From contig JACRDV010000159.1 in assembly GCA_024860865.1 (NCBI GenBank), positions 1-9,376 on the forward strand: a stretch of DNA of 9,376 bases. The letters are read 5' to 3'. The position numbers and the translations under genes were made by a program. Of the stretch, positions 144-7,282 are shown one piece after another. The notes beneath the pieces are model-generated. The model saw only the letters and a list, made by a program, of their open reading frames with translations, made no database searches and had not been told where the DNA came from. Source of the DNA: JACRDV01 sp024860865 [NCBI: Methanobacteriota archaeon]. GTDB taxonomy: Archaea > JACRDV01. Position 1 is the first letter of the stretch. Each line of letters opens with the position of its first letter.

Positions 144-152
144 TAGGAGGGA
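144..152 (+). promoter_or_regulatory. Strong Shine-Dalgarno site that fixes the selD start
   Basis: TAGGAGGGA lies just upstream of GTG 157, with the AGGAGG core at 145-150 and about six bases of spacing. It matches the archaeal anti-SD tail. No comparable site precedes TTG 238, the first start codon after the in-frame TGA. This is direct evidence that translation begins upstream of the TGA at 202-204. Confidence 0.8.
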
Positions 153-156
153 TTTA

Positions 157-1182
157 GTGGGAGACAAGCTTAGATTGACACAGATGGTAGCTTTACATGG
201 ATGAGCTTGTAAAGTAAGGGAAAGAGAGCTAGACAAGTTGCTCAGCGGTGCAGGTATAATAGTTCCAGAAATGGGCAAAATTTTACTCGGACCAGGTGAT
301 GATGCAGGGGCAATAAAGATTACAGAAGACCTTGCTTACGTTACACACCTCGATTTCTTCACTCCAATTATAGATGATCCTTATCTCTTTGGTAAAATAG
401 CTGTTTGCAATGCTATGAGCGATATCTTTGCAAAAGGTGCAGTAGAGAACCTTGGAATCTTGATAATAATGGGCTTTCCAATTAAAGTTCCTATAGAAAT
501 AATGCAACAAGCATTAAAAGGAATTCAGGATTTTTGTTCAGAAGTTAATGCTGCAATCTTAGGCGGCCATACAATAATTAACCCCTGGCCAATTGTTGGA
601 GCTGCAGTCGTAGGTACAATAAATCCTAGCAAAATAATCAAAAATTCTACCGCAAAACCCGGTGATGCTTTGATTTTAACTAAACCTCTTGGAACTCAAC
701 CAGCGATGGCTGCACATAGAGCGATTGGAACTGATGCCGAAAAGGAAATAACAGCTATACTATCAAAAGCAGAAATTGAAAAAATGATTAATGCTGCAGT
801 CGAAATTATGATAACCTCAAACAAAGCTGCTGCTGAAGCAATTATAGAAATTGGGGCTAGTGCAGCAACGGATATAACTGGATTTGGAATTCTAGGACAT
901 GGCGGCGAGATGGCAAAACGGAGCAAAGTTGACATTGAGATCCATACTCTTCCAGTAATAAAAGGAACGCTTCAAATATCGAAACTCTTTGGTTATGGTT
1001 TAAAAGAAGGAAGATCTGCAGAGACTTCAGGTGGACTCTTAATTTCAGTTTCAAAATTAAAAAAAGAAGAACTTATTCAACAACTAAAAAAGCAAAATAT
1101 TCCAGCATTTGAAATTGGCCAAGTTAAAAGTGGAATTGGAAAAATCTCTTTACAAAAGGATCTTAGTATAATTGAAATCTAA
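157..1182 (+). CDS. selD: Selenide, water dikinase (selenophosphate synthetase), Sec-containing, in-frame TGA at 202-204
   Basis: SelD makes selenophosphate from selenide and ATP, the selenium donor for Sec-tRNA synthesis. Read from GTG 157 the protein is 341 residues, close to the usual length. The N-terminus reads L-R-L-T-Q-M-V-A-L-H-G-U-A-C-K, with the TGA as residue 16, Cys18 and Lys19. This is the glycine-rich G-(U/C)-x-C-K catalytic loop, where E. coli has Cys17 and several organisms have Sec. Later motifs match the family: G-P-G-D-D (ATP/Mg) at about 45-49, T-H-L-D-F-F-T-P-I-I-D-D-P, N-A-M-S-D-I-F-A, L-G-G-H-T-I, K-P-L-G-T, T-D-I-T-G-F-G-I-L-G-H and E-T-S-G-G-L-L. A call starting at TTG 238 would delete the catalytic Sec and Lys. 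The gene follows a TusA-like gene and is followed by a SECIS-like hairpin. The family is near certain. Decoding of TGA as Sec is inferred, but supported by position, RBS and hairpin. Confidence 0.93.
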
Positions 1183-1192
1183 TGGTCAATGA

Positions 1193-1223
1193 AAAACTAG
1201 TAAACCTTTTAGGAACTAGTTTT
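1193..1223 (+). promoter_or_regulatory. Putative archaeal-type SECIS element in the selD 3' UTR
   Basis: Starting 10 bases after the selD stop, AAAACTAGT (1193-1201) pairs perfectly with ACTAGTTTT (1215-1223) in a 9-bp stem. Inside, AAA (1202-1204) faces a single A (1214). A 3-bp stem CCT/AGG (1205-1207 with 1211-1213) then closes a UUU apical loop (1208-1210). Known archaeal SECIS elements sit in the 3' UTR and have a lower helix, an asymmetric internal loop described as GAA on the 5' side and A on the 3' side, a short GC-rich helix of about three pairs, and a small U-containing loop. The geometry matches closely; the first internal-loop base is A rather than G. An outer TGGTC/GACCA pairing (1183-1187 with 1243-1247) and a small hairpin CTGCT-GCAA-AGCAG (1230-1243) flank it. 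Function is inferred. Confidence 0.78.
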
Positions 1224-1263
1224 GAGTTACTGCTGCAAAGCAGACCACTAATAAAAATTTTGG

Positions 1264-1393: not shown

Positions 1394-1524
1394 AAAGTGG
1401 CGGCGGCCACGGGGATTTTCGAGTTAGCACTTATCGAACCCCAAGCCCTACTGGGCTTACCGAATCTCTCCTAGAGATCTGAAGTTCGGTGTGAAGCACC
1501 AGCTACACTGATAGCCACCACTTT
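1394..1524 (+). ncRNA. Putative structured non-coding RNA, family not recognised
   Basis: No reading frame explains this G+C-rich stretch in an AT-rich spacer. It folds by eye into a closed multi-branch structure. The closing helix is AAAGTGG/CCACTTT (1394-1400 with 1518-1524), continued after one mismatch by GGC/GCC (1402-1404 with 1514-1516). Inside are GGGG..TTCGA/TCGAA..CCCC (1411-1442), AAGCCC-TACT-GGGCTT (1443-1458), CCGAA with ATCTC/GAGAT and TTCGG (1460-1489), GGTG-TGAAG-CACC (1488-1500) and GCTA/TAGC (1502-1515). Neighbouring helices abut or share a base or two, so some may be alternatives. A TATA-like element lies upstream and a T-run follows. It does not match 5S rRNA, SRP RNA, RNase P RNA or tRNA as I know them: there is no T-loop, no CCGAAC...GAAGUUAAGC order and no SRP GGAAG/GCAG loop. 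Confidence 0.55.
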
Positions 1525-1537: not shown

Positions 1538-1611
1538 ATGAAATGAAAGATAACTTTTTAGATAATATGTTCTCAACTATTTATTTTAAATTTCCTAAGC
1601 CAATTTAGGGG

Positions 1612-2181
1612 GTAGAATCGATAAACTTTACAGAATTCTTCGATAAAGTCCAGAAAACCAGTTTCTATAGAAAAATGCCCATTGATTTTCTTAAATTTTG
1701 TCGGACCTAGACCTAAACCTAACATGTCTGCTCTAGGATGTACGCTGCTGTCCTAGAGCTTTAACAATCGAGCTAGCTAAAAAAACAAAATTGTTATAGG
1801 GATAGATCATTCTGAAGATATAATAAAGAGAGCTAAGGAAATGCAATTTCAGCTAAGATGTTATAACGTAGTATCTAGAGCGGGAGATGCCGAGAATATT
1901 CCTTTTCAGATGGAAGTTTTGACTTGGTAATAGCAACCTCTGTGCTGTATCTCTTACTAGATCCTCTAAAAGGGCTAAAGAGATGATCAGAGTGGCAAAG
2001 TTTGGAGGTAGAGTAGCAACTCCTCACCTTTCGGATAAGATAAATGGGGAGAATGTTGAAAGGTACAGCGAGCACTATGCGCTAAAAGGTTTTGAACTCG
2101 AGGCTATCTATGGGTTGGGTGCGGCAGAATCCAATCACAGATTCTAAGATTGTCCTTGGAAGAGTTGCATGGAAAATGTGA
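1612..2181 (+). pseudogene. Decayed class I SAM-dependent methyltransferase
   Basis: Joining frames gives a roughly 190-residue UbiE-like methyltransferase. The pieces are an N-terminal segment F-F-D-K-V-Q-K-T-S-F-Y-R-K-M-P (1612-1698), P-R-P-K-P-N-M-S-A-L-G-C (motif I remnant, to 1741), an A-A-V-L-E-L piece with stops TAA 1762 and TAG 1774, K-I-V-I-G-I-D-H-S-E-D-I-I (motif II, from about 1787), G-D-A-E-N-I-P-F (motif III region), S-D-G-S-F-D-L-V-I-A-T-S-V-L-Y-L-L, E-M-I-R-V-A-K-F-G-G-R-V, and a C-terminal D-S-K-I-V-L-G-R-V-A-W-K-M ending at TGA 2179-2181. Frames change near 1696, 1742, 1765-1785, 1903, 1977 and 2130-2140. Several changes are single-base homopolymer indels, but the ruined motif I and two in-frame stops indicate real decay. 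An SD-like TTAGGGGG (1605-1612) survives, but GTA sits where the start codon should be. The methylation substrate cannot be told. Confidence 0.75.
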
Positions 2182-2356
2182 GCTATTAAACATTGAACTT
2201 TTTAAAACGATGGATGGGGGGCGCTCTTCTCTAAGGGGGAAAATGAAAAATGAAAACTTATTTTCTAAGTATCTTTGTTTTAAAACAATCTAATGTTTGG
2301 TTCAAATTTAAAGCGCTTTTTTCTCATTTTGGTTATTTGTTGAGCAAGTCCTTACA
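2182..2356. other. AT-rich spacer with no recognised gene
   Basis: Between the methyltransferase remnant and the hdrC promoter I see no conserved reading frame, tRNA or obvious stable RNA. The only irregularity is a G-rich patch near 2211-2246 in otherwise AT-rich sequence. Confidence 0.4.
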
Positions 2357-2367: not shown

Positions 2368-2424
2368 GTTCCAGTTTCATACTGAAGCGGCATTAAATCA
2401 AAGTCCTTTGTTTAGGTGCTCTCT

Positions 2425-2907
2425 TTGAAGCTAAATCCGAAATTCAAGGATGAAATCACAAAGATTCACGGTGGCGAGAAAATAAAGCTTTGCTATCAAT
2501 GCGGTACTTGTTCTGGCAGTTGCCCAATTACTTTCATAACCAAAGCTTATAACCCTAGGGGATTCATCCAAATGGCTTTGCTAGGTTTAAAAGAAGAAGT
2601 TCTTACTAACAAAAATATTTGGTTATGCACCGGTTGCTACTCGTGCTACGAGCGATGTCCACAAGGAGTTGAGCCAGCCTATGTTATTAGGGTTCTCTGC
2701 AGTTTAGCCGCAAAAACTGGTAATATCCCAGCAGCGACTAAAGCTGGCGCACAAACGATCCTTAAGCAAGGGCTTCTTGCTCAAGTGACTGATTTTGTTC
2801 AAAAGCAACGCGAGAAACTTGGTTTGTCAAGGATCGGCCAAACTGGTGTTGAGGAAGTACAAAAAATTGCAAAAAAAACTGGCTTTGACAAATTGGTTGG
2901 GTTATAG
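2425..2907 (+). CDS. hdrC: Heterodisulfide reductase subunit C-like iron-sulfur protein
   Basis: HdrC is the small ferredoxin-like subunit that passes electrons between HdrA and HdrB. Two complete [4Fe-4S] motifs are visible: C-Y-Q-C-G-T-C-S-G-S-C-P (Cys 23, 26, 29, 33) and C-T-G-C-Y-S-C-Y-E-R-C-P (Cys 68, 71, 74, 78). They are followed by an alpha-helical C-terminal domain of about 80 residues. Length is 160 residues. I place the start at TTG 2425: GGTG at 2415-2418 is then a Shine-Dalgarno site with a six-base spacer, the same layout as hdrB and gcvH. GTG 2416 is inside that site and has no RBS of its own, though it would add only three residues. The stop TAG overlaps the hdrB Shine-Dalgarno site. 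No hdrA is present, so the flavin partner must be elsewhere or differ. Confidence 0.9.
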   Translation: MKLNPKFKDEITKIHGGEKIKLCYQCGTCSGSCPITFITKAYNPRGFIQMALLGLKEEVLTNKNIWLCTGCYSCYERCPQGVEPAYVIRVLCSLAAKTGNIPAATKAGAQTILKQGLLAQVTDFVQKQREKLGLSRIGQTGVEEVQKIAKKTGFDKLVGL

Positions 2908-2915
2908 GTGACTTA

Positions 2916-3797
2916 ATGGCCCTAGACTACGCTCTTTTTTTAGGTTGTGTAATCCCAACTAGAGAGTTTGGATTGGAAGTTTCAGCTAAAAAAGTTCTTG
3001 AAGCATTTGATGTAAAGTTTCATGAAATGATTGGTGCAGGTTGCTGTGGAACTGCCGGTCCAATTGCTGCAGTTGATTTTTTAACAATGGCTGCTATTGC
3101 AGCTAGAAACATATGTATCGCAGAAGAAATGGGCATGGATATAATTACATTTTGTACTGGTTGTGCAGGAACTCTTGGAAAATATAACAAACTTTTAAAA
3201 GAAGATGAACATCTCAGAGAGCAAGTAAATGAAATTTTAAAAGACATTAACAAAGAGTTTAAAGGAAAGATAGAAGTTAAACACTCTCTTGATGTTTTGG
3301 TAAATGATATTGGATTAGATAAAATAAAAAATTCCATTAAAAAGAAATTCAATGGATTAAATGTTGCTGCCCATATAGGTTGTCATGCTGTTAGACCAAG
3401 TGATATTCGGAAATTTGATTCACCCGAGCGCCCGATTCTCTTTGATCAATTGATAGAATTAACAGGTGCAAAGAGCATCAACTTCCTTGGGAAAAACCTT
3501 TGTTGCGGTGCGGGTTTAATAGGTGTTGCAGATGACTATTCACTAGCATTAGTGCGGGAAAAATTAATTAAAGTTAAAGCAGCTGGAGCAGATTGTATGT
3601 GCACGATTTGTGCGGCTTGTCATCTCCAGTATGAAATGAGCCAACTTTCATTAAAAACAAAGTTTAAGGAAGATTATAATATTCCGGTTTTACATTATTA
3701 CCAGCTACTTGGTCTTTCAATGGGCGTGAAGCCTGAGGAGATAGCTCTTCAAACCGTAAAGATTAAAGCCGATAATGTATTAGCAAAACTGAAATAG
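2916..3797 (+). CDS. hdrB: Heterodisulfide reductase subunit B-like protein, two CCG domains
   Basis: HdrB carries the non-cubane [4Fe-4S] clusters that cleave or form disulfides in heterodisulfide reductase. Two cysteine-rich CCG domains are present. Domain 1 has Cys11, Cys43-Cys44, Cys80 and Cys83 (C-x31-CC-x35-C-x2-C, the canonical spacing). Domain 2 has Cys156, Cys196-Cys197, Cys232 and Cys235 (C-x39-CC-x34-C-A-A-C-H). All cluster ligands are kept, so catalytic competence is expected. Length is 293 residues, normal for HdrB. The ATG is preceded by GGTG (2907-2910) whose first G is the last base of the hdrC stop, so the two genes are translationally coupled. Downstream lie a GcvH-like protein and two lipoyl synthase proteins. 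The substrate disulfide may therefore be lipoamide or a lipoyl-bound sulfur species rather than CoM-S-S-CoB; that part is inference. Confidence 0.93.
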   Translation: MALDYALFLGCVIPTREFGLEVSAKKVLEAFDVKFHEMIGAGCCGTAGPIAAVDFLTMAAIAARNICIAEEMGMDIITFCTGCAGTLGKYNKLLKEDEHLREQVNEILKDINKEFKGKIEVKHSLDVLVNDIGLDKIKNSIKKKFNGLNVAAHIGCHAVRPSDIRKFDSPERPILFDQLIELTGAKSINFLGKNLCCGAGLIGVADDYSLALVREKLIKVKAAGADCMCTICAACHLQYEMSQLSLKTKFKEDYNIPVLHYYQLLGLSMGVKPEEIALQTVKIKADNVLAKLK

Positions 3798-3806
3798 GTG
3801 AGAAAT

Positions 3807-4229
3807 ATGGCTAAAGCGGGAGAATACGAGGTTCCTGAGGATTTATACTACAGTGAGGATTTAATATGGGCTAAAGTTGAGCCAGATAAAAAAGTAAAGT
3901 GTGGTCTTACTGACTATGGTGCAAAAATTTCTCAAAATATTGTATACATTGAATTGCCAATTGTGGGTACAGCTGTTACTAAAGGAGAAGTAATTGGTAC
4001 TGCTGAAACTGTAAAAGCAGTTGGAGAAATTAAGGCACCATTGAGTGGAACTGTAACAGCCGTAAATGAAGATGCAATAAATGACCCATCGTTGATCACT
4101 TCAGATCCCTATGGCAAGGGGTGGTTTGTAGTGATTCAGCCCTCTAATTTAGATGCCGATGTAAAGGAATTGATGGATGGAAGAGCAGCTATTGAGTGGT
4201 TCAAAAAGAAAATAGCTGAATCTAGCTAA
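3807..4229 (+). CDS. gcvH: GcvH/LbpA-like lipoate-binding protein
   Basis: This is a single lipoyl-domain protein of the glycine cleavage H-protein family, 140 residues long. It starts with a Y-x-V-P-E-D-L-Y-Y-S-E-D-L-I-W segment. The fold core I-V-Y-I-E-L-P-x-V-G-T follows, then V-I-G-T-A-E-T-V-K-A-V-G-E-I-K-A-P-L-S-G, in which Lys70 is the predicted lipoylated lysine. The C-terminal D-P-Y-G-K-G-W-F-V motif is typical. The start is ATG 3807, six bases after GGTG (3797-3800); GTG 3798 overlaps that site and is unlikely. No glycine decarboxylase (GcvP) or T-protein is nearby. Instead it sits between hdrB and the lipS pair, the context seen for LbpA, the lipoate-binding protein of the sHdr sulfur-oxidation system. 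GcvH of a conventional glycine cleavage system encoded elsewhere remains possible. Confidence 0.92.
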   Translation: MAKAGEYEVPEDLYYSEDLIWAKVEPDKKVKCGLTDYGAKISQNIVYIELPIVGTAVTKGEVIGTAETVKAVGEIKAPLSGTVTAVNEDAINDPSLITSDPYGKGWFVVIQPSNLDADVKELMDGRAAIEWFKKKIAESS

Positions 4230-4237
4230 CTACTATT

Positions 4238-4252
4238 TTTTTCTCTTTTTTT
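4238..4252 (+). terminator. T-rich stretch between gcvH and lipS1
   Basis: TTTTTTCTCTTTTTT-type sequence fills the 32-base gap between gcvH and lipS1. It could give partial termination in an archaeon and lower lipS expression relative to hdrCB-gcvH. There is no strong Shine-Dalgarno site before lipS1, only TTTGGT. It may be no more than a pyrimidine-rich spacer. Confidence 0.3.
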
Positions 4253-4261
4253 GGTCATTCT

Positions 4262-5305
4262 ATGGATTTTGAACAAGCTTTAGCTCTAGCGATCAAATCT
4301 CAAATTAGCAGTCAAGTTATTGAATATCTTTTTAGCGCAGATGATAATCAACTCGAGACTTTGTTGAATGCCGCTCGAAATGTTTCAACGCCGGATGTGA
4401 TTTACTTCTTTTATACGTCTAGTTTGTTTCCAACAATTTCGCTTACTGCAACATATTGTGAATTAAACTGTAAACATTGCGGTAGAAACTTGTTAAAGAA
4501 ATTAGTTCCAACTTTTTCACCTGAAGAATTAGTGAATATTTGCCAGCGATTCAATAGAAATGGTGCAACGGGAGTCTTGTTAAGCGGTGGATGTAATTTT
4601 GATGGTGTAGTTTGTTTTGAAGAATTTTATGATGCAATCAAGACAATAAAGAAAACTACTGATTTGATTTTGGTGGCACATCCTGGGGTTATTGATTATC
4701 AACAAGCAAAACTATTGAAAGAAGCAGGGATTGATGGTGTTTTTGTTGATGTAGTTGGTGATGAAGATACTGTGCAAGAGATATATGGTAAAGAGTCCAA
4801 ATTAGATGATTATCGAAATATGTTGAAAGGGCTCACAAAAGCTGAAATAGAAATTATTTCTCCACATGTATGTGTTGGTCTTTATTACGGCCAAGTGAAA
4901 GGTGAGCTAAAGGCTTTAGAAATAATTTCAGAATTTAAACCAGCAGTTGTAGTTATTACAGCTCTTATGCCAATAAAGGGCACTCCGCTAGAAAATTGTA
5001 AAGTGAAACCCATAGAAGTTGGAAAAATTATAGCTATTGCAAAACTAATGATGCCAAATGTACCGATAGCACTTGGCTGTGCGCGTTCAAAAGGAATAGA
5101 CCGTAGCAAAATCGATGAGCTGGCAATTAAAGCAGGTGTAAATCAAATTGCAATTCCAACTACAGTTGCATTTAAAATTGCTCAGAGGTCAGGAATTAAA
5201 ACTCGATCTTTAAATTCGTGCTGTGCAGTACCAGCAAATTATTTGCTTAACTTGAATAACCCAAATGTTTTTACGGACCAAACAAGGATGTTAGGAGAAA
5301 TTTAA
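4262..5305 (+). CDS. lipS1: Radical SAM lipoyl synthase component, LipS1-like
   Basis: This radical SAM enzyme has the CxxxCxxC cluster motif at Cys66, Cys70 and Cys73 (Y-C-E-L-N-C-K-H-C-G). Further cysteines at Cys273 (L-G-C-A-R) and Cys320-Cys321 (N-S-C-C-A-V-P) could bind the auxiliary cluster that donates sulfur. The barrel shows L-L-S-G-G-C-N-F-D-G and H-P-G-V-I-D. Length is 347 residues. In Thermococcus kodakarensis and in sHdr sulfur oxidisers, two such proteins (LipS1 and LipS2, often annotated as biotin synthase-like) together insert two sulfurs into octanoyl groups to make lipoyl, replacing LipA. Location next to gcvH and to a second radical SAM gene supports this. Assignment as LipS1 rather than LipS2 rests on gene order and the second protein's C-terminal motif, and is tentative. 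The stop overlaps the next ATG (TAATG). Confidence 0.82.
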   Translation: MDFEQALALAIKSQISSQVIEYLFSADDNQLETLLNAARNVSTPDVIYFFYTSSLFPTISLTATYCELNCKHCGRNLLKKLVPTFSPEELVNICQRFNRNGATGVLLSGGCNFDGVVCFEEFYDAIKTIKKTTDLILVAHPGVIDYQQAKLLKEAGIDGVFVDVVGDEDTVQEIYGKESKLDDYRNMLKGLTKAEIEIISPHVCVGLYYGQVKGELKALEIISEFKPAVVVITALMPIKGTPLENCKVKPIEVGKIIAIAKLMMPNVPIALGCARSKGIDRSKIDELAIKAGVNQIAIPTTVAFKIAQRSGIKTRSLNSCCAVPANYLLNLNNPNVFTDQTRMLGEI

Positions 5306-6294
5306 TGCGAATAGAAAAAATTAGAATGTCAGTTGGAACTGCAGCTGTTCTTGGTTTCATAAAGATGGAGATGTTTGCTACTCCAACAACTGCTTATCTT
5401 CTCACTTATTACCCTGGAAAGTGTACTGCTAATTGTCAGTTCTGCGCTCAAGCTCGGGAAAGTAAGGCAAGCGGTGAGATAATTGCTAGAGCTATTTATC
5501 CCGTTTATTCATTAATTGAAACAATACCAAGAATTAAGGCTACTTTTGAAAGTGGAATTTTAAAAAGAGTTTGCATTCAAACTATTAACTATCCCAATAT
5601 GCACGAAGATGTATTAGAGTTAGTTCGAGCAATCAAAGAATGTAGTGAGGTCCCTATCACTGTTTCGAGACACCCGTGTACAAAGGAAGAATTGGAACAA
5701 TTAGCTCAAGTTGGAGTAGACCGGATAGTAATTCCACTTGATGCTGCGAGTGAGAGAGTATTTGATAAAATAAAAGGAAGGAGTGCAGGTACCTCATATT
5801 ATTGGGAAAAACATTTTAAAGCTTTAAAGCTAGCAAAAGAAATTTTTAAGGGGGAAGTTGGAACTCATTTAATTATTGGTTTGGGCGAAACGGAAAAAGA
5901 AGCTGTTGAAATCATTCAAGAATTGAGTAGTTTAAAAATTAAGTGTAGTTTGTTCGCATTTACTCCTATAAAGGGAACTCGATTAGAAAAAAACCCAAGA
6001 CCAAATATTGGGTCATATCGACGAATTCAGCTTGCCCAATGTTTAATCGAATCCGGCGTAAGTTCAGTAAATAACATGCTGTTTGGGGAAGATGGGACCA
6101 TCTTAAATTTTGGTGTTGATGAAAAAGTGCTTGAGAGAGTAATTAAAAGTGGGGCTCCATTCATTCCATATGGTTGCCCAGGTTGCAATAGACCATTCGC
6201 AACCGAAAAGCCTAGCGGAGTACTTTACAATTTCCCACAACTGCCAACAGAGTTTGAAATTGAAAGAATTGAAAAAGAATTGAATTTGTCTTAA
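5305..6294 (+). CDS. lipS2: Radical SAM lipoyl synthase component, LipS2-like (biotin synthase-like)
   Basis: The radical SAM motif is at Cys40, Cys44 and Cys47 in Y-Y-P-G-K-C-T-A-N-C-Q-F-C-A-Q, a biotin-synthase-like signature. The C-terminal P-Y-G-C-P-G-C-N-R-P-F-A-T-E-K-P-S-G (Cys291, Cys294) is a likely auxiliary-cluster site and is typical of the LipS2-type proteins I know. Other barrel elements are V-P-I-T-V-S-R-H-P and G-T-H-L-I-I-G-L-G-E-T-E-K-E. Length is 329 residues. The ATG overlaps the lipS1 stop by one base and has TTAGGAGA (5290-5297) as Shine-Dalgarno site, so equal, coupled expression with its partner is expected. No biotin genes are nearby, and gcvH upstream supplies the obvious substrate. 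The ligase or octanoyltransferase that loads octanoate is not in the window. Confidence 0.83.
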   Translation: MRIEKIRMSVGTAAVLGFIKMEMFATPTTAYLLTYYPGKCTANCQFCAQARESKASGEIIARAIYPVYSLIETIPRIKATFESGILKRVCIQTINYPNMHEDVLELVRAIKECSEVPITVSRHPCTKEELEQLAQVGVDRIVIPLDAASERVFDKIKGRSAGTSYYWEKHFKALKLAKEIFKGEVGTHLIIGLGETEKEAVEIIQELSSLKIKCSLFAFTPIKGTRLEKNPRPNIGSYRRIQLAQCLIESGVSSVNNMLFGEDGTILNFGVDEKVLERVIKSGAPFIPYGCPGCNRPFATEKPSGVLYNFPQLPTEFEIERIEKELNLS

Positions 6295-6350: not shown

Positions 6351-6640
6351 AGGTTATATTTTGATACGAAAAAAATTTAGAAACACGATTTGGTTGCTAT
6401 TAGCTTCAATTTGCCTGAACGGAGCAATTTTGCTTGGTTTGAAGCTCAGCTCGCTTACTATTTCGCTTAATTTTTAAATTGAGTAGTTTTGGCTTTCGCT
6501 TCGTTCAAAAGCTCAATTTTTTTCATTCTTGACTGAAGGAAGCGATTTTGCTTTATGGCGTTTCAATTGTTTCATTTTTGAACTTTTGGTAATTGGTAAT
6601 TTGTAATTTGTATTTGGAAAAAATTAAAAAGCAGAAAATG
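6351..6640. other. AT-rich spacer, degenerate short repeats, no gene seen
   Basis: I found no conserved reading frame or tRNA here. The stretch holds scattered small inverted repeats, such as AGCAA-TT-TTGCT at 6423-6434. The related string AAGCGATTTTGCTT recurs about 110 bases later (from 6540). A tandem repeat at 6586-6616 is listed separately. It may be worn-down coding sequence, but nothing recognisable remains. Confidence 0.4.
6586..6616 (+). repeat. Degenerate tandem repeat of TTGGTAAT / TTTGTAAT units
   Basis: The units TTGGTAA, TTGGTAATTTG, TAATTTG and TATTTGG follow each other in near-tandem fashion with a 7-8 base period. Only about four units are present. This looks like slippage-type low complexity rather than a CRISPR or iteron array. 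Confidence 0.5.
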
Positions 6641-6653
6641 TGAAATTAACTCA

Positions 6654-6800
6654 GGCGCAGGTGAGCTCGAGGGAAATAGCGGGCCTTCTGTAGGAAGACA
6701 GCATTCGAGTTGTTCTTTCCTACGGAGTGTGGATGCAAGCCTGAGGCACGCCCAAGGTGTTATCACCGCTAAGATGTGCTCCATAGTGAGCCCCTGCGCC
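6654..6800 (+). ncRNA. Putative structured RNA upstream of the 6872 gene, family not recognised
   Basis: This stretch is clearly richer in G+C than the spacer before it and is closed by a perfect helix GGCGCAGG/CCTGCGCC (6654-6661 with 6793-6800). After a TGA/C internal loop the helix continues with GCTC/GAGC (6665-6668 with 6788-6791). Inside are GTAGGAA/TTCCTAC (6690-6696 with 6717-6723, extendable with bulges), GGAG/CTCC (6724-6727 with 6779-6782), GCC-TGA-GGC (6739-6747) and GGTG-TTAT-CACC (6756-6767). It ends 71 bases before the start of the next gene, so it could be a leader (cis-regulatory) RNA or an independent RNA. It has no tRNA T-arm and I could not fit it to RNase P, SRP RNA or a riboswitch class. 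The RNase-P-like strings GAGGGAAATAGC and AAGATG are too weak to claim. Confidence 0.5.
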
Positions 6801-6871
6801 CACTTTGTCCAGATGCATCAGGAAGCCTTTTGAACATGGATATAGGTAACTCTTGAAGGAAGGTTAGAGAA

Positions 6872-7282
6872 ATGCCGAGAAAACAGTGGATATTTATCGG
6901 CAGCGACATACCTGAGGACACTCGCAGAGTCTTGAAAGAGCGTATAGAAAGGCATGCTGTAAAGAAGTGGCAAGGACGCTACCGTGAAATTTCCCTGCGC
7001 TTTCGCGGCAAATTCGCTTATATCGATGTCTTCGAGCCCCTAAGCAAGTACACTAAATCCTATGTGAAGGATAAAGAAAGGTTAAAAGTCATAGAAGCCA
7101 CACCGACTAAGCTATGCCGTCTGCGCTATTCCGGAGACCCTGACAAATGGGAATTTGCCTTCTACAAATACAGCGATGGATGCTACGAGCTCTGCTACTT
7201 GCCATCTGGTAGCTTTTTCGGCAGGCCTGAAGAATGTTTCGATACCGCCGCAAAGGTGTATTTGGATCACAAAAAAATTTAA
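6872..7282 (+). CDS. Small conserved protein of unknown function
   Basis: The 136-residue soluble protein has no signal peptide or membrane segment. It is rich in Arg/Lys and aromatic residues: N-terminal P-R-K-Q-W-I-F-I-G-S-D-I-P-E-D, a middle R-F-R-G-K-F-A-Y-I-D-V-F-E, then P-T-K-L-C-R-L-R-Y and W-E-F-A-F-Y-K-Y-S-D, and a C-terminal S-G-S-F-F-G-R-P-E-E-C-F-D-T-A-A. I recall similar 120-140 residue proteins, uncharacterised, in Chloroflexota and other bacteria; that is memory, not a search. Compared with the lip and hdr genes its codons use more G and C, as does the RNA-like stretch just upstream. This suggests later arrival by transfer. GGAAGG about 10 bases before ATG 6872 is a plausible RBS. 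The gene ends head-on against the vapC gene on the other strand. I cannot assign a function. Confidence 0.8.
   Translation: MPRKQWIFIGSDIPEDTRRVLKERIERHAVKKWQGRYREISLRFRGKFAYIDVFEPLSKYTKSYVKDKERLKVIEATPTKLCRLRYSGDPDKWEFAFYKYSDGCYELCYLPSGSFFGRPEECFDTAAKVYLDHKKI

What the first reader, a model, noticed from the sequence alone, without database searches (positions are those of the whole stretch)
157..1182. selD read through an in-frame TGA: an archaeal selenoprotein that standard gene calling truncates
Seen directly: from GTG 157, with an AGGAGG site six bases upstream, the frame is open to 1182 except for TGA 202-204. That codon falls at the catalytic position of SelD (H-G-U-A-C-K, Lys19 conserved). 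Known: SelD has Cys or Sec at this site, and archaeal Sec use is rare, reported mainly in Methanococcales, Methanopyrus and Lokiarchaeota-type Asgard archaea. Inferred: this organism decodes UGA as Sec, and SelD is itself Sec-dependent. The call from TTG 238 would be a dead enzyme.
Basis: partly seen in the sequence, partly recalled or inferred. Interest (0 to 1): 0.9.

Follow-up and report, generated by a model that had tools for sequence, protein, structure and literature searches.

The report
Archaeal selD reads UGA as selenocysteine
An archaeon from a poorly sampled deep lineage makes its selenium-activating enzyme by reading a stop codon as the rare amino acid selenocysteine, and the dedicated transfer RNA gene, broken by two short introns that hide it from standard gene finders, lies right beside it.

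Summary
Window 157-1182 is a full-length SelD with one in-frame TGA (202-204) at the catalytic HG-U-AC-K site. (1) An archaeal SECIS hairpin at 1193-1223, ten bases after the stop, is the window's best match to a model built only from methanogen SECIS elements. (2) A tRNA-Sec gene lies on the minus strand at 1519-1401 (anticodon UCA, 9/4 fold, G73), interrupted by a 13-nt anticodon-loop and a 17-nt T-loop insert with bulge-helix-bulge splice geometry; ARAGORN and Rfam's cut-off miss it. (3) The same genome encodes SelB, PSTK and six further genes (three hdrA, three mvhD) with nine UGAs at Sec-type positions, while UGA also ends ordinary genes. SepSecS was not found in this 92%-complete draft; SelB runs off a contig end. 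None of the 109 relatives whose kinship was listed shares the host's phylum, and its SelD is a separate deep archaeal branch.

The parts
145..150 (+). Shine-Dalgarno AGGAGG, six bases before GTG 157
   Evidence: sequence
157..1182 (+). selD, 341 aa, selenophosphate synthetase with Sec at residue 16
   Evidence: NF010705 381 bits (cut-off 291), TIGR00476 268 bits (cut-off 125)
202..204 (+). in-frame TGA read as Sec at the catalytic position
1193..1223 (+). SECIS: AAAACUAGU-AAA-CC-UUUUA-GG-A-ACUAGUUUU, AAA/A kink-turn-like motif
   Evidence: independent model R2, filters off, 19.3 bits, E 0.0013, next best 8.1 bits; only descriptor hit in window; fold z -3.1 (63-nt stretch)
1184..1246 (+). wider 3'-UTR fold: GGUC/GACC closes over the SECIS and a second small hairpin (1231-1242)
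   Evidence: fold of 1183-1270, z -3.4; function of the second hairpin unknown
1401..1519 (-). tRNA-Sec gene (pre-tRNA 119 nt, predicted mature 89 nt), G73 at 1401
   Evidence: (55.0 bits, E 2.1e-9 with model R3)
1480..1482 (-). anticodon UCA
   Evidence: sequence, alignment
1466..1478 (-). 13-nt predicted intron at 37/38, AG|A bulges, central helix CUUC/GGAG
   Evidence: inferred from geometry, no RNA data
1416..1432 (-). 17-nt predicted intron in T loop (59/60), AU|A and AA|U bulges, central helix UUCG/CGAA
   Evidence: inferred from geometry, no RNA data
1398..1400 (-). CCA encoded after G73

Best explanation
This is a genuine selenoprotein gene. The ribosome starts at GTG 157 and, at UGA 202-204, inserts selenocysteine instead of stopping, directed by the SECIS hairpin in the 3' UTR. 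The Sec-tRNA comes from the adjacent convergent tRNA-Sec gene, whose transcript must first lose two short introns, presumably by the archaeal tRNA splicing endonuclease. It would be charged with serine, phosphorylated by PSTK, converted to Sec with selenophosphate (the product of SelD itself) and delivered by SelB. Shown by sequence: gene, UGA position, SECIS, tRNA-Sec, PSTK, SelB and other UGA genes. Inferred: splicing, charging, the Ser-to-Sec step (SepSecS not found) and the protein itself.
For: SelD conserved on both sides of the UGA, catalytic neighbours invariant. SelD in 39 of 394 archaea, each with a TGA copy. SECIS found by a model without any own-genome sequence; the same model finds a canonical GAA/A SECIS after mvhD on own contig C68 (25.3 bits, E 2.3e-4). 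AAA/A was shown active at reduced level in Methanococcus (PMC11881835, passages). tRNA-Sec 55.0 bits against 36.6 and 24.9 for the two tRNA-Ser in the own stretches searched; removing the inserts gives loops CUUCAGA and UUCGAUU, identical to Methanococcales tRNA-Sec. SelB 297.5 bits, over cut-off, as in exactly the 8 UGA-SelD genomes of 15 searched; best solved relative archaeal SelB 4ac9 309 bits against 159 for the best EF-Tu. PSTK: best relative L-seryl-tRNA(Sec) kinase 3a4l, E 8e-39. Nine UGAs in six hdrA/mvhD genes, with Cys-bearing paralogues in the same genome at matching positions. Window tetranucleotides correlate 0.74-0.91 with 9 own stretches; best of 48 foreign stretches 0.73, median 0.355.
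Against: No SepSecS in the draft genome: the only PF05889 match (48 bits) is SepCysS, whereas 7 of 7 other UGA-SelD genomes in that search score 377.9 bits or more. No SECIS was found for the C132 hdrA-mvhD pair, and only a non-canonical hairpin for C147. PSTK is below its curated cut-off (195 of 290.5 bits; the two Asgard PSTKs in the same search score 145 and 127). With default filters model R2 missed the window SECIS, and the whole-genome RF01852 and R1 searches missed the window's tRNA-Sec and SECIS. Low RF01852 scores are not specific: all 14 control genomes ring at E 0.001, 5 over cut-off. No reads, RNA or protein data.
Confidence: 0.95

Rival explanations
1. The TGA is a sequencing or assembly error in a Cys-type SelD.
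For: Draft of 160 contigs; reads not available.
Against: Nine further UGAs at Sec-type positions on three other contigs, SECIS and tRNA-Sec next to the gene, SelB and PSTK in the genome.
Confidence: 0.01
2. UGA is generally reassigned in this organism (for example to Trp or Cys).
For: UGA falls inside several genes.
Against: 19 of 76 long ORFs end in TGA; the in-frame UGAs counted here sit where paralogues or relatives have Cys or UGA; Sec machinery is present.
Confidence: 0.01
3. selD is a decaying pseudogene, or only the TTG-238 product is made.
For: Standard calling gives the 238-1182 ORF.
Against: The residues before the UGA are conserved, ribosome-binding site at GTG 157, SECIS present, single copy with otherwise intact frame.
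Confidence: 0.02
4. The UGA is decoded through tRNA-Sec, PSTK and SelB, but the synthase step is done by the SepCysS-type enzyme, giving Sec (from selenophosphate) or Cys (from sulfide).
For: SepCysS found, SepSecS not; SepCysS is reported to accept Sep-tRNA-Sec in vivo (PMC8762117, passage).
Against: Genome 92% complete and SelB, a neighbour of SepSecS in Asgard-type G053, runs off the end of own contig C153, so a gap is the simpler reason; SepCysS normally serves tRNA-Cys.
Confidence: 0.05

Closest known systems
Archaeal Sec-containing SelD/SPS (Methanococcales, Methanopyrus, Asgard)
   Same: UGA at the HG-U-[AS]CK site; SECIS after the stop in L004-L010; 35-52% identity
   Different: Separate deep branch of the archaeal SelD tree, outside all three groups, place unsure
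Euryarchaeal SECIS element (eaSECIS, GAA/A kink-turn-like motif)
   Same: 9-bp stem, NAA opposite A, CC/GG inner pairs
   Different: AAA/A and A+U-rich in selD; canonical GAA/A in the same genome's C68 mvhD
Lokiarchaeota tRNA-Sec with a T-arm intron
   Same: Insert in the T arm (PMC9499178 passage: 31 nt)
   Different: Two inserts, 17 nt in the T loop and 13 nt after the anticodon; both short
AK8/W8A-19, Bathyarchaeota and Archaeoglobi Sec systems (Mukai 2017, 2022; passages)
   Same: Sec outside methanogens and Asgard; AK8/W8A-19 is reported with SelD, HdrA and VhuD as selenoproteins; SepCysS in the same cell
   Different: SelD not split, PSTK and SelB not fused here; the one NiFe-hydrogenase large subunit found has no UGA inside its matched parts. 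Whether this host is one of these lineages could not be tested

Membership tests
Selenophosphate synthetase (SelD), Sec type | SelD family over curated cut-off | tested here: met
   NF010705 381/291 bits, TIGR00476 268/125 bits
Selenophosphate synthetase (SelD), Sec type | Sec or Cys at the catalytic site followed by conserved Lys | tested here: met
Selenophosphate synthetase (SelD), Sec type | makes selenophosphate | not testable with these tools
   needs enzyme assay
Archaeal SECIS | 3'-UTR stem, two invariant A opposite A, GC clamp | tested here: met
   definition from PMC11881835 passages
Archaeal SECIS | directs UGA recoding | not testable with these tools
   reporter assay needed
Archaeal tRNA-Sec | 9/4 fold, long D stem with 4-nt loop, UCA, long variable arm, G73 | tested here: met
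   D stem 7 positions with one U.U mismatch
Archaeal tRNA-Sec | Rfam RF01852 gathering score | tested here: not met
   35.5 of 47 bits with the two inserts in place; inserts are penalised, so this lowers the automatic call, not the structural one
BHB tRNA introns | 4-bp central helix between two 3-nt bulges at each junction | tested here: met
   no outer intron helix worth the name in the 13-nt one
BHB tRNA introns | spliced out in vivo | not testable with these tools
   tRNA sequencing needed
Archaeal Sec-decoding trait | SelB (EFSec) | tested here: met
   C-terminal part cut by contig end
Archaeal Sec-decoding trait | PSTK | tested here: met
   below NCBIfam cut-off, above the two Asgard PSTKs searched
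Archaeal Sec-decoding trait | SepSecS | tested here: inconclusive
   none in a 92%-complete genome
Archaeal Sec-decoding trait | further selenoproteins | tested here: met
   3 hdrA and 3 mvhD with 9 UGAs

The most novel reading that the evidence does not exclude
The lineage decodes UGA with tRNA-Sec, PSTK and SelB but has no SepSecS; its SepCysS-type enzyme converts Sep-tRNA-Sec, using selenophosphate to make Sec (or sulfide to make Cys), so that the cysteine and selenocysteine pathways are merged.
Probability: 0.05. Interest if true: 0.88.

Novelty: new member of a known kind. Interest (0 to 1): 0.56.

Why it matters
A 2026 review (PMC13188914, passages) names only Methanococcales, Methanopyrales and Asgard as Sec-using archaea. 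A further, deep-branching host with a euryarchaeal-type SECIS helps to test whether Sec decoding is ancestral in archaea or was passed between lineages. It also shows how such systems can escape annotation: selD is truncated by standard ORF calling, and the intron-split tRNA-Sec is missed by ARAGORN as run here and by Rfam's cut-off, so presence/absence surveys may undercount Sec users.

Tried and rejected
EF-2 trees place it as a long isolated branch without firm position. An AU test does not reject sisterhood with Methanococcales (p 0.115); the Methanopyrus test did not finish and was not rerun; own plus Asgard rows plus G010 was already one side of a branch at support 79, not starred, so nothing is shown there either. 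IQ-TREE runs failed or timed out; FastTree and treekit were used instead.

SECIS: MAFFT misaligned unpadded elements; no SECIS found for C132 hdrA-mvhD, an unsure hairpin for C147. Weak R2 hits in Asgard and haloarchaeal loci (best E 0.098) were not used. In the R1 genome search one non-Sec control had no match and the other five weak ones (best 15.3 bits, E 2.4). A UGA in the NiFe-hydrogenase large subunit was looked for and not seen inside its matched parts. T-loop-intron tRNA-Sec was looked for in 13 Asgard-type genomes: 8 have an intronless-sized one over cut-off, 5 have none over cut-off (an intron-bearing gene could be missed by that search, as in the own genome).

Rejected: sequencing error, general code change and pseudogene (see rivals).

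Full report
Observation. The frame from GTG 157 to TAA 1182, the AGGAGG site and TGA 202-204 are as described. The product is SelD over two curated cut-offs, and its best matches among solved structures are selenide, water dikinases. Residues HG-U-.C-K are invariant among eight aligned archaeal proteins, with UGA at position 16 in all eight.

Comparison with other archaea. In 81 genomes (own plus 80) ten have a SelD-level hit (E 2.7e-69 or better), and all ten carry one TGA. In 394 genomes (own plus 393) 39 pass E 1e-40; all 39 have a copy with one TGA, and one (G243) has a second match without. The other 355 have no match at that threshold. The 39 fall in seven families by the tool's codes: the own one; f10, which I take for Methanopyrus (inferred from GC-rich sequence and tree place; unnamed); f23 and f42, which group with named Methanothermococcus and Methanocaldococcaceae loci; and f38, f53 and f121, with large genomes, which form one side with named Sigynarchaeum and Lokiarchaeota. 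Cys-type SelD does occur in haloarchaea (L035, L036).

SECIS. Ten bases after the stop lies a 9-bp stem with AAA opposite A and a CC/GG clamp (1193-1223). The 63-nt stretch holding it folds with z -3.1. A covariance model from six Methanococcales/Methanopyrus-type elements only (R2) puts its best window hit exactly there when run without filters (19.3 bits, E 0.0013; next 8.1 bits). With default filters it was missed. A strict descriptor has this one hit on both strands of the window, and 2 hits in 4 Mb of one-strand simulated sequence. Seven of seven other SelD loci examined (L004-L010) have a GAA/A hairpin within about 50 bases of the stop; the two Asgard-type loci L011 and L012 gave no hit with that descriptor or with R2. 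Peiter et al. 2025 (PMC11881835, passages) found AAA/A active at reduced level and the two following A residues indispensable. R2 also finds a canonical GAA/A element right after the own-genome mvhD on contig C68 (25.3 bits, E 2.3e-4). The pair count is not independent evidence, because elements were chosen for pairing.

tRNA-Sec. Rfam at relaxed threshold finds tRNA-Sec at 1519-1402, minus strand, 35.5 bits, under its cut-off of 47; ARAGORN finds nothing. Such a score alone proves little: an own tRNA-Ser also scores 35.5 and all 14 control genomes ring. A model from 15 of the 17 over-cut-off archaeal tRNA-Sec genes found, without the window (R3), gives 55.0 bits, E 2.1e-9, against 36.6 and 24.9 bits for the two tRNA-Ser in the own stretches. 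Run without filters on 1000-2000 it gives 33.0 bits for the inner part. The inserts are 13 and 17 nt. Both show the same splice geometry: a 4-bp central helix between two 3-nt bulges, cut after the second bulge base. At this fixed geometry a random insert of the same composition would pair by chance in about 3.6% and 2.6%. Removing both leaves an 89-nt cloverleaf with a 9/4 fold, loops CUUCAGA and UUCGAUU as in Methanococcales, and G73 followed by an encoded CCA. Nine of nine other UGA-SelD genomes searched have a tRNA-Sec over cut-off of intronless size.

Rest of the machinery. SelB (300 aa, cut by the contig end) and PSTK lie on contig C153, separate genes about 10 kb apart. SelB is over its cut-off in 8 of 15 genomes searched, exactly those with UGA-SelD. 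SepSecS: 7 of 15 genomes score 377.9 bits or more; the own genome has only a 48-bit match, identified as SepCysS. In Asgard-type G053, PSTK, tRNA-Sec, SepSecS and SelB are neighbours, so a gap beyond the truncated own selB is plausible but unproven.

Other selenoprotein genes. PF02662 finds eight matches in the own genome, three with TGA. Reading the stretches gives, from the likely starts: C132 hdrA (1 UGA) and mvhD (1); C68 hdrA (1) and mvhD (2); C147 hdrA (2) and mvhD (2): six genes, nine UGAs. HdrA UGAs lie in FPTD[DE]CA.U and, once, in an N-terminal ICKUG; mvhD UGAs in FAC.KUGYAAAD and in VGUKKGEC or IGUTKGDC. The first mvhD place also bears TGA in two Methanococcales-type genomes (L158, L159). 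Paralogues in the same genome have Cys at the matching place, for example FPTNDCSMC and FLCSWCGY. C68 mvhD has a SECIS, C147 mvhD a non-canonical hairpin over its stop, C132 none found.

Is it one organism? GC of the window is 36.5%, of ten other own stretches 35.6-39.7%. Tetranucleotide correlation is 0.74-0.91 with nine own stretches and at most 0.73, median 0.355, with 48 foreign stretches; the lowest own and highest foreign values nearly touch. The window is contig C124 of the genome as held.

Where does it sit? All 109 relatives whose kinship was listed share only the domain (80, 29 more; 335 others were not listed one by one). In an EF-2 tree of 56 rows (61 genomes searched; three not fetched, two named Lokiarchaeota rows left out) the host is a long isolated branch, at most 47% identical to any. 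In that tree it lies outside the Methanococcales, Methanopyrus and Asgard clades, but a place next to Methanococcales is not rejected (p 0.115) and long branches make its place unsure. In a SelD tree of 62 rows (28 of the 80 scan loci used) archaeal SelDs form one side (support 100) and the own SelD is a separate deep branch of unsure place.

Known work. PMC13188914 (review, 2026; passages) names three Sec-using archaeal groups. Mukai 2017 and 2022 (PMC5424206, PMC8762117; passages) add AK8/W8A-19, Bathyarchaeota and Archaeoglobi. Huang 2024 (PMC11227280; abstract and Results) covers Asgard. Santesmasses 2017 and a 2022 review (PMC5330540, PMC9499178; passages) report a T-arm intron in Lokiarchaeota tRNA-Sec as the only archaeal case. 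A 2024 study (PMC11291895; passages) finds tRNA introns in 92-95% of tRNA genes, over half with several, in three genomes of two Sec-using Asgard lineages, so a two-intron tRNA-Sec may exist there unremarked. Searches for tRNASec with intron and archaea (53 papers, 20 listed; 2) and with bulge-helix-bulge (1) listed no paper on a two-intron tRNA-Sec by title or abstract start; most of these papers were not opened.

Verdict. A real selenoprotein gene with its own SECIS and tRNA-Sec in a new host lineage; a known kind, very well supported, with an unusual tRNA-Sec and one open question, the missing SepSecS.

Noticed in passing
window 6654-6800 (+): GC-rich island closed by GGCGCAGG/CCUGCGCC before an ORF without Pfam match (6872-7282); the stretch 6640-6850 folds better than shuffles (z -2.25), no credible Rfam match. 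Possible unknown structured RNA.
   Followed up: partly
L171:8911-10887 (own contig C147): HdrA with two UGAs, one at the second Cys of the N-terminal CxCG motif (ICKUGVNIG), besides the FPTDDCAMU site.
   Followed up: partly
L212:9003-10943 and L212:11970-14546 (own contig C134): Intein-like insertions in ribosomal protein S12 and in the RNA polymerase A'' subunit (seen in the translations; not searched as inteins).
   Followed up: no
window 1398-1401 and 16 other tRNA-Sec genes: CCA is encoded after G73 in the window gene and in 10 of 16 compared archaeal tRNA-Sec genes, against a review statement that archaeal tRNA-Sec CCA is not encoded (PMC9499178, passage).
   Followed up: partly
window 2416-6294: Genes that look like hdrC, hdrB, gcvH and two radical SAM enzymes (one with a BATS domain), perhaps lipoate synthesis, in a row (domains; gene names inferred).
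   Followed up: no
window 1560-2200 (+): Broken methyltransferase-like reading frames, seen by eye only; probable gene remnant.
   Followed up: no
L139:6637-10044 and L172:1787-3064 (own genome): Cytochrome c assembly genes including CcmF, and a multihaem cytochrome: suggests an anaerobic respirer (inference).
   Followed up: partly
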